Below, piece by piece: positions 58,101 to 61,100 of a DNA stretch of 64,000 nucleotides; position 1 is the first letter of the stretch; every line of letters begins with the position of its first letter. The position numbers were made by a program, and so were the translations under genes. Below the pieces are notes generated by a model that had not been told where the DNA came from, did no database searches, and saw only the letters and a list, made by a program, of their open reading frames with translations. Source of the stretch: Sycon ciliatum (lineage: Eukaryota; Porifera; Calcarea; Leucosolenida; Sycettidae); the NCBI RefSeq assembly GCF_964019385.1, contig NC_088644.1:21469559-21533558 (forward strand). The letters are read 5' to 3'.

Positions 58101-61100
58101 AATCGATCGAGTGCGACTCAAAAATCACAGCGACTCGCAGGAAACTGCGATGCATAAACGGCACTGCATACTAGCTCGCGCAGTCAGTAAAAGTGATGCT
58201 GTGACTATGTCGTACACTCACGACACCTGTACAGTGCACGGACCCCGTTTTTTTCTCGAGAAGGTGTGATTTCTAGTACATGTACCTGTGAACTCTGGCT
58301 GGCTTCGCGTGCACATACTGACTGTACTGGTGTCCTTTTTGAACTACGCGTACCACTTTGCGCGGCTTTCATTCAGTAAGTCCAGTAAGTTCATGTACTT
58401 TCCGTACTGACAAGCATCATCTTTCCTCCACGATCCCGGCGGAGGTCTTGTTGTTTGTTTTCTTCTTTCTGGTTCACTTACATCTTTTCGTGACATTATA
58501 GCTTTCTGCTTGTAGCCAGTCGGTCTTTCTGGTCGTGAGGAACTTTTGGTATCACGTTCGTCCTTCTCTCTGACAATTGTCCAAGCTGTAGTTTTTGTCT
58601 AGTCTGGTTCTGCCTCCAACATGTCTGTACGACAGAGTACCTTTGAGAAGTGGGTGGCAGAGGTCGATGTCCAGAAGAAATGGCTTGGTTCTGAGAAAGC
58701 TACAGGTGCAGCGGTGACGCTAATTTTCTGCCAGCTATGCAGACAGCACGAGTCCTCCCTCCGTGGACTGAGAAATTTGAGTCGGTCTTCGTGGAAGAAA
58801 AAGTGCTAATCAAAAATCAAGGACTGCTACGCATTTTGGCGTTTGCGTCGCGAAAACTGCTATGCAAAAAAATGACAGTAAATTCATCCCTGACTTTAGT
58901 AGCTGGTGTGTGTCTAACAGCCACAGCTTCTGTGTTTTCTTAGGTTGGCGCTTTTCTAAACTTGATTAGAATGATTTTGATTGAGCATATTGAATAGATT
59001 GTTTGTGTTGTGGAGTACCGATGTGACCAATGCATGCTGTAGTCTCTTGCGGTACATAACGTCCTCCTTTTTTCCTCTCTTCCATGTGTGCTTGCAGTGG
59101 TGCACCAGAATCTCCTCAGAAAGCGGCAAAGGGTGGCAAGAGGAAAAGAGTTTCCAGTGAAGGCCAACAGCCCACCGCCGCTGCAGATGCTGATAGTTCT
59201 CCAGCCGCCAAGCGTACAAAGAGAGCTAAGGGCCAGTCGGAGGGCCGTAGTCGGCGTCGATCTGACTTTGAAATTGATCAGGGACCAGTCAGGACGGTCC
59301 ACCGCCGCACATCGCTGGAAGAGAAGCGAGTAACTGCCGAAGAGTACCGGCTCCGTCTCAAACAGCGTGAAGAGGAGGCTGCAAAGGAGAAGGAGGCCGA
59401 AAAGGAGCGGAAGAAGGCCGCCAAGATTGAGGATGCTGCCAAAGCCAAAGAGCTGAAGAAAAAGGCACTTGAGGAAGAGAGAGTTCGCAAAGCAGCAGAA
59501 GTAGAAAAGGAAAGACGCAGATCCAAAGAACTGAAGCAAGCAGCCGTAGAAGAGGCGAGGAAGGCAAAGGCAGCAGAGATTGAAGAGAAAAAGGAAGAGA
59601 AACGTCTGGAGATGGAGAAATTGCGGCTGGAGCGTATGGATGAGAAACAGCGCAAGCAAGAGGAACACAAGCAGCATCTTGAAGAGATCCGCCGCCAGAA
59701 GGCAGACGAACGTGAGCGTGAAACTGAGCAGAAGAAGAAAGAGCTTGCCTCACTCAGGGTATGTCTGTTGTATGAGCTTGCCTCACTCGGGGTATGTCTG
59801 TTGCACGAGCTTGCCTCACTCGGGTTATGTCTGTTGCACGAGCTTGCCTCACTCAGGGTATGTCTGTTGCACGAGCTTGCCTAGTAGTAGTAGTAGTATT
59901 TATTATTTTACTAGGGCAATCCCCACAGACTGTGAGTCTTTTTACAGGGTACCCTAGATAAGTGCGTGAAATAGAGCTGAATGAAGAAAGCCGTAAGTGC
60001 GTGAAATAGAGTGCCTCACTCAGGGTATGTCTGTTGTACGAGCTTGCCTCACTCGGGTTATGTCTGTTGCACGAGCTTGCCTCACTCCGGGTATATCTGT
60101 TGCACGAGCTTGCCTCACTCAGGGTATGTCTGTTGCACGAGCTTGCCTCACTCAGGGTATGTCTGTTGCACGAGCTTGCCTCACTCGGGGTATGTCTGTT
60201 GCACGAACTTGCCTCGCTCCGGGTATATCTGTTGTACGAGCTTGTACCGCTTGAAGTCTTTGCTGTACCTGTTTTTACCATTCCTGCAGCTGTTCATTCC
60301 TGACACATTAGATAGACTTACCAGTAGCATGGATGGCTGCTCATGCATACCCGTGTGTATGTGTGTGGGTCATGTGTGCATACATCTAGTTGGGTATTGG
60401 AGCGGGGTCAAGGTCCCTAGTTTGAATTTTTCAGCACTATTCTTTTGGTAGCATCCATCCTTAGCATCCAGTTCCGATCCCTGTGTGTACTTTTGGTGCT
60501 GGGTACTTCTTCAGGAGGAGAAGGCGCGTGCCAGAGATGAAGAGCGTGAAGCAAAGAAACAACAGCTAGAAACTCTGCGCGCACACGTATCTCAGCAGAA
60601 GCAGGCGGTGAAAGACCTGCTTGCTGTCAACACAGCCTACACTCGATCGTCCAGCAGCAGCTCTGGCTCGAAACCAAACTTCTCGCGGACCCCGAGCACT
60701 GCGTCTTCTGCGTCGGCCAGTGATTCAGAGTCTGGAATCGACTGTGAATTCCTCGTGCCACCGATTGTCCCCGACGAGACCGTCCCGGATATCTGTATCA
60801 ACATCGACCTGCCAAGTTTGCCTGCCTGGGAGGTGCCTGTTCCCGTCTCTCAGTACCACAACCTGCTCATGGTGTCCGAGTTCCTGACATCCTTTGCGTC
60901 CGCACTCGGTCTCAGCCAAATATACTCTGCAGGTATGTAGCTACTGCTTCACTGTTTCTGACACTCGGCAGAAGTGTGTGAACATCAAACTTTCAATGAG
61001 ACGTGCCATTTTATTCTAAATTTGAAACATTCATCACCCATCTGTGGTAGGTTTATTGATCCATGTCCTGGTCACAGACATCCTTGCAGAAGTTGGTCCC

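What the first reader, a model, noticed from the sequence alone, without database searches (positions are those of the whole stretch)
59741..60250. In-frame minisatellite built from a splice donor
The 33-bp unit joins the last 18 nt of exon 4 to the first 15 nt of its intron, so each intact copy supplies another AGG|GTATGT or GGG|GTATGT donor. Because 33 is a multiple of three, splicing at copy 2 or 4 would add 11 or 33 residues (unit VCLLYELASLG) without breaking the frame, and exon 5 is phase 0. Copy number change could therefore tune protein length or splice strength in a chromatin gene. A retroelement tail has split the array.
Basis: partly seen in the sequence, partly recalled or inferred. 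Interest (0 to 1): 0.75.

Follow-up and report, generated by a model that had tools for sequence, protein, structure and literature searches.

The report
Sponge minisatellite across a splice site
In a sponge chromatin gene, a 33-base stretch covering the end of one exon and the start of the next intron has been copied about eleven times, giving spare splice sites; the annotated protein uses only the first one, and this looks like ordinary repeat growth with no sign so far that the extra sites matter.

Summary
An 11-unit, 33-bp minisatellite (59741-60237) in Sycon ciliatum straddles the exon 4 donor of a zf-4CXXC_R1/WSD chromatin gene; a 129-nt insert splits unit 5. Seven of 11 units keep AGG or GGG|GTATGT.

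Function is not supported. The one annotated Sycon protein found matches splicing at unit 1 over all 639 residues compared; its 90% cluster has one member. A search for the 33-residue insert found nothing, though it lacked a positive control. Donor positions vary no less than the rest of the unit (3 of 9 against 4 of 24). An open frame (about 0.26) and a minisatellite over a junction (0.24) are unremarkable by chance. Tandem repeats at exon-intron boundaries are known genome-wide in humans.

I judge it a mostly neutral intronic minisatellite, a new member of a known kind. By U1 pairing, units 2 and 4 are as good as unit 1, so some use is possible. RNA use and copy-number variation could not be tested; the genome search failed in 12 tries.

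The parts
55181..55419 (+). exon 1 (coding part) of the host gene, ATG at 55181; zf-4CXXC_R1 spans exons 1-3
   Evidence: spliced reading matches P0001 100% over 639 aa
57354..57468 (+). exon 2
57749..57879 (+). exon 3
59098..59758 (+). exon 4, highly charged region; last 18 nt are the exonic part of repeat unit 1
59741..59773 (+). repeat unit 1; annotated donor AGG|GTATGT after 59758
   Evidence: P0001 junction R|E
59774..59806 (+). repeat unit 2; donor GGG|GTATGT after 59791 (would add 11 aa)
59807..59839 (+). repeat unit 3; GT lost (GGG|TTATGT)
59840..59872 (+). repeat unit 4; donor AGG|GTATGT after 59857 (would add 33 aa), identical to unit 1 from -18 to +12
59873..60039 (+). repeat unit 5, split by the insert 59883-60011; donor AGG|GTATGT after 60024 lies beyond an in-frame stop at 59882
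59883..60011 (-). 129-nt insert, probably a short retroelement piece: (AGT)n at its left end reads as an (ACT)n tail on the minus strand; flanked by TGCCT duplication
   Evidence: element identity not confirmed
60040..60237 (+). repeat units 6-11; donor 9-mers GGG|TTATGT, CGG|GTATAT, AGG|GTATGT, AGG|GTATGT, GGG|GTATGT, CGG|GTATAT
60238..60244 (+). 7-nt partial unit GAGCTTG closing the array
60515..60932 (+). exon 5, phase 0 start (EEKARARDEE...)
61570..61823 (+). exon 6 (the weak DDT match spans exons 5-6)
63361..63461 (+). exon 7, part read

Best explanation
A recent tandem expansion of a 33-bp seed that happened to straddle the exon 4 donor. Unit 1 remains the exon end and its donor is the one normally used. 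The other ten units became the first ~480 nt of the intron and are removed with it. Slippage between short matches made the array, perhaps starting from two GAGCTTG words 33 bp apart. Units then drifted and shuffled, and a short retroelement-like piece inserted into unit 5, putting an in-frame stop just after unit 4. Shown: anatomy, frame, annotated junction, no sign of donor conservation. Inferred: slippage origin, recency, neutrality, and that spare donors at units 2 and 4 fire at most as low-level noise.
For: Array anatomy. The public Sycon ciliatum protein P0001 matches splicing at unit 1, 100% over 639 of 639 query residues; its cluster has one member sequence. No protein carrying the 33-residue insert scored among 6769 candidates (no positive control). 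Variable positions are not depleted in the donor 9-mer: 3 of 9 against 4 of 24 (hypergeometric P(<=3)=0.93); 4 of 10 downstream units have a changed +1 or +5 base. Chance that at least one of the window's 15 minisatellites, placed at random, covers one of this gene's 12 known junctions is 0.24. Both array edges share GAGCTTG.
Against: Units 2 and 4 have donors as good as unit 1 by U1 pairing (-6.5 and -6.2 against -6.2 kcal/mol), units 7 and 11 (GTATAT) also score -6.5, and units 1 and 4 are identical from -18 to +12, so local sequence gives no reason for unit 1 to be exclusive; some use of the others is quite possible. The unit 1 donor has the weakest U1 pairing of the six donors scored in this gene, which favours leakage. 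A protein record is not RNA evidence.
Confidence: 0.75

Rival explanations
1. Functional tandem alternative donors: units 1, 2 and 4 are all used and add 0, 11 or 33 residues to the charged region between the zinc finger and the DDT-like domain; array length sets the isoform mix.
For: In-frame, open, phase 0, near-equal donor sequences.
Against: No isoform with the insert found among protein records; no donor conservation among units; unit 3 donor lost; the added peptide is hydrophobic in a strongly charged region (inspection).
Confidence: 0.1
2. Unproductive-splicing or decoy array: the many U1-binding sites downstream compete with unit 1, and use of units 5-11 reads into the stop at 59882, so the array sets how much mRNA is productive.
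For: Units 5, 8, 9 and 10 keep AGG or GGG|GTATGT and lie beyond the in-frame stop at 59882. That intron-proximal donors can win such competitions is recalled general knowledge.
Against: No RNA data. Donor positions vary no less than the rest of the unit. The best U1-paired GT in 59700-60510 is not in a unit but in the insert (after 59992, -6.8 kcal/mol).
Confidence: 0.1
3. Repeat with dual-specific splice sites (AG|GT), where units are spliced out as introns one repeat long or used as recursive ratchet points.
For: Five of 11 units have CTCACTCAG just before the donor, a passable acceptor: 8-11 pyrimidines in -20..-4 against 10-14 at the six real acceptors.
Against: No unit contains AGGT; the AG and GT are one base apart, so a 1-nt exon would result. 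Neighbouring units would give introns of about 32 nt (inference).
Confidence: 0.02

Closest known systems
Internal tandem repeats at exon-intron boundaries (De Grassi & Ciccarelli 2009, PMC2812944; outline and passages read)
   Same: A minisatellite spanning an exon-intron boundary with potential to change splicing; the paper reports 27 intron modifications after manual inspection.
   Different: Those cases are human paralogs with copy-number variation and transcript evidence; here one locus in a sponge, no variation or RNA data.
Introns within tandem repeats and dual-specific splice sites (Duan et al. 2024, PMC10809524; passages read)
   Same: Tandem units that each carry splice signals, and a multiple-of-three period as in 45 of the paper's 77 repeat-length introns; the paper counts 792 introns embedded in 262 human tandem repeats.
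   Different: Here only the donor end of the intron is in the array and no unit has AGGT, so the sites are not dual-specific, and the annotated intron (756 nt) is not removed as a whole number of units.
[quoted passage not shown] 2010, PMC2891723; passages read; Zhuo et al. 2007, seen only in reference lists, not held)
   Same: Tandem duplication copies splice signals; the paper notes that multiple-of-three duplications tolerate retention.
   Different: Here the acceptor at 60514 lies outside the array, so the array appears to have lengthened an intron, not created one.
Coding 33/30-bp repeats in prawn lectins (PMC7536079; passages read)
   Same: Same period class, slippage proposed, copy number varies.
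   Different: Repeats lie inside an exon and are translated.

Membership tests
Minisatellite spanning an exon-intron boundary | tandem array of units >9 bp covering an annotated or inferred splice junction | tested here: met
Minisatellite spanning an exon-intron boundary | copy number varies between alleles or paralogs | not testable with these tools
   own-genome search did not complete; no second individual available
Alternative tandem donor system | more than one donor of the array used in transcripts | tested here: inconclusive
   only protein records could be searched; none found with an insert, and one search had no positive control
Dual-specific splice-site repeat (UBC-like) | AGGT in the unit, usable as 5' and 3' site | tested here: not met
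   0 of 11 units contain AGGT; the only AGGT in 59600-60600 is at 60411
Intron created by tandem duplication | both intron ends lie in copies of the repeat | tested here: not met
   acceptor at 60514 is outside the array, which ends at 60244

The most novel reading that the evidence does not exclude
The array works as a length and dosage switch: donors of units 1, 2 and 4 give in-frame isoforms with 0, 11 or 33 extra residues, units beyond the insert give unproductive transcripts, and array length differs between sponges, so a repeat mutation in one step changes the isoforms and amount of a zf-4CXXC_R1/DDT-like chromatin protein.
Probability: 0.07. Interest if true: 0.55.

Novelty: new member of a known kind. 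Interest (0 to 1): 0.22.

Why it matters
If several donors were used, this would be a clean natural test of how the spliceosome chooses among near-identical donors a whole number of 33-nt units apart, with units 1 and 4 identical for 30 nt, in an early-branching animal. Otherwise it is a worked example of how a repeat can grow across a splice junction without evident harm, because one unit goes on serving as the exon end.

Tried and rejected
Rejected: chance similarity (the unit core is found only in the array, at up to 4 mismatches); dual-specific or recursive splice sites (no AGGT in 11 units); intron creation by duplication (acceptor outside the array); selection for donors (no depletion of variation); a known RNA family in 54000-64000 (none at gathering thresholds).

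Led nowhere: the own-genome search for other copies or a second haplotype did not complete in 12 tries. A PDB sequence search with exon 5 gave nothing at E<=1. Nine paper searches listed no title about this Sycon locus; two of them listed only part of what matched (20 of 24, 10 of 279).

Weak points of my own tests: the insert search did not return P0001 either, so its sensitivity on this charged stretch is unproven; the U1 score is a free duplex, not a full splice-site model, and it ranks a GT in the insert above every unit; the printed label for unit position 16 is -2 where the usual numbering is -3.

Full report
What is there. TRF reports a 33-bp array at 59741-60244. In register it has 11 units: four intact (59741-59872), a fifth split by 129 nt (59883-60011) between two TGCCT copies, six more to 60237, and a 7-nt partial unit. 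The unit is 18 nt of exon end and 15 nt of intron start. Mean pairwise difference between units is 7.0% per site, and several units are identical (3=6; 4=8=9; 2=10). Units 3 and 6, identical and with a lost GT, lie on opposite sides of the insert, so much of the shuffling probably predates the insertion (inference).

Gene and species. Seven exons (the seventh in part) read through the window give a 639-aa protein that is 100% identical over its whole length to P0001, an 824-aa protein named 'DNA ligase 1-like' from Sycon ciliatum (only the 7985 candidates sharing most words were scored, 6 proteins listed). Pfam gives P0001 zf-4CXXC_R1 (6e-24), WSD (9.4e-08) and a DDT match below its cut-off (19.4 bits against 22). 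The domains do not support the name 'DNA ligase 1-like'. An eLife 2023 paper (PMC10538959, passages read) describes zf-4CXXC_R1/DDT/WHIM1 proteins as plant DDR1-3-like and names Amphimedon as the metazoan exception that has one.

Which donor is used. P0001 reads KKKELASLR|EEKARAR, which is unit 1's donor joined to the acceptor at 60514, phase 0. Its 90% cluster holds one member sequence, so no near-identical variant is held with it. A search scored only on residues 373-430 of a form with the 33-residue insert returned none of 6769 candidates at E<=10. P0001 itself did not score there either, so the search has no positive control. Protein records are not transcripts, and how P0001 was supported is not known to me, so use of units 2 or 4 remains open.

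How good the donors are. Seven of 11 units have AGG or GGG|GTATGT; units 3 and 6 have TT in place of GT; units 7 and 11 have GTATAT. U1 pairing of units 1, 2 and 4 is -6.2, -6.5 and -6.2 kcal/mol; units 7 and 11 also score -6.5, units 3 and 6 -3.7; a GT inside the insert (after 59992) scores -6.8, the best in 59700-60510. The other five donors scored in this gene range from -6.6 to -9.9; by matches to CAGGTAAGT unit 1 (6 of 9) ties with exons 3 and 6 (U1 and consensus sequences recalled). Unit 1 and unit 4 are identical from -18 to +12. Local sequence therefore cannot say why unit 1 should win, and its weak U1 pairing would favour leakage.

Tests against function. Seven of 33 unit positions vary: 3 of the 9 donor positions (-3, +1, +5) and 4 of the other 24; donors are not protected (P(<=3)=0.93). 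With so few variable positions this test has little power. The period is a multiple of three by chance once in three, and only five intronic codons had to be open (about 0.79), jointly about 0.26 (my arithmetic). Fifteen minisatellites (1573 bp, 2.5% of the window; the TRF rows with period 16 or more, this array included, shorter periods left out) placed at random would cover at least one of this gene's 12 known junctions with probability 0.24. So the coincidence is not striking. Read with the insert left out, the array is open through all 11 units; the insert now puts a TAG at 59882, ten bases past unit 4.

Origin. Both ends of the array carry GAGCTTG. A seed flanked by this 7-nt direct repeat, expanded by slippage, fits, though any array with a partial last unit looks so. 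The insert has (AGT)n at its left end, a 5-nt duplication at its edges, and an 18-nt word twice. A short minus-strand retroelement piece is likely but unproven, with no second copy in the window and no Rfam hit at gathering thresholds.

Known kinds. Minisatellites at exon-intron boundaries that can change splicing (PMC2812944), introns inside tandem repeats (792 in 262 repeats in human, PMC10809524) and duplicated proto-splice sites (PMC2891723) are all in print; I saw passages of these papers, not their whole text. This locus lacks the AGGT of dual-specific sites and its acceptor lies outside the array.

Verdict. Confirmed anatomy, correct frame arithmetic, unsupported function. Most likely a neutral intronic minisatellite whose first unit is the working exon end. 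Genome-wide copies, allele lengths and RNA could not be tested here.

Noticed in passing
window 55181-63461 (+); P0001, P0002, P0004: The host gene joins zf-4CXXC_R1 with WSD/WHIM-type and a weak DDT match in a calcareous sponge, and a Geodia protein (P0004) has zf-4CXXC_R1 plus WSD; the passages read of PMC10538959 name only Amphimedon among animals with this combination, so it may be a wider sponge feature. The public name 'DNA ligase 1-like' looks wrong.
   Followed up: partly
window 6874-8419 (-): LINE-like remnant with a reverse-transcriptase match (RVT_1, 1.8e-13) followed, in an overlapping second frame, by C2H2-type finger matches below Pfam's cut-off.
   Followed up: partly
window 62782-63193 (+): In an intron of the same gene, a C2H2-like open frame related to that LINE (25 of 59 residues identical) shortly followed by a (TAG)n run at 63139-63193, probably a LINE 3' end.
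   Followed up: partly
window 59959-59976 and 59994-60011: Two identical 18-nt copies of TAAGTGCGTGAAATAGAG, 35 nt apart start to start, inside the 129-nt insert.
   Followed up: no
window 44658-44915: A 127-bp unit duplicated in tandem at 99% matches, presumably a very recent duplication.
   Followed up: no
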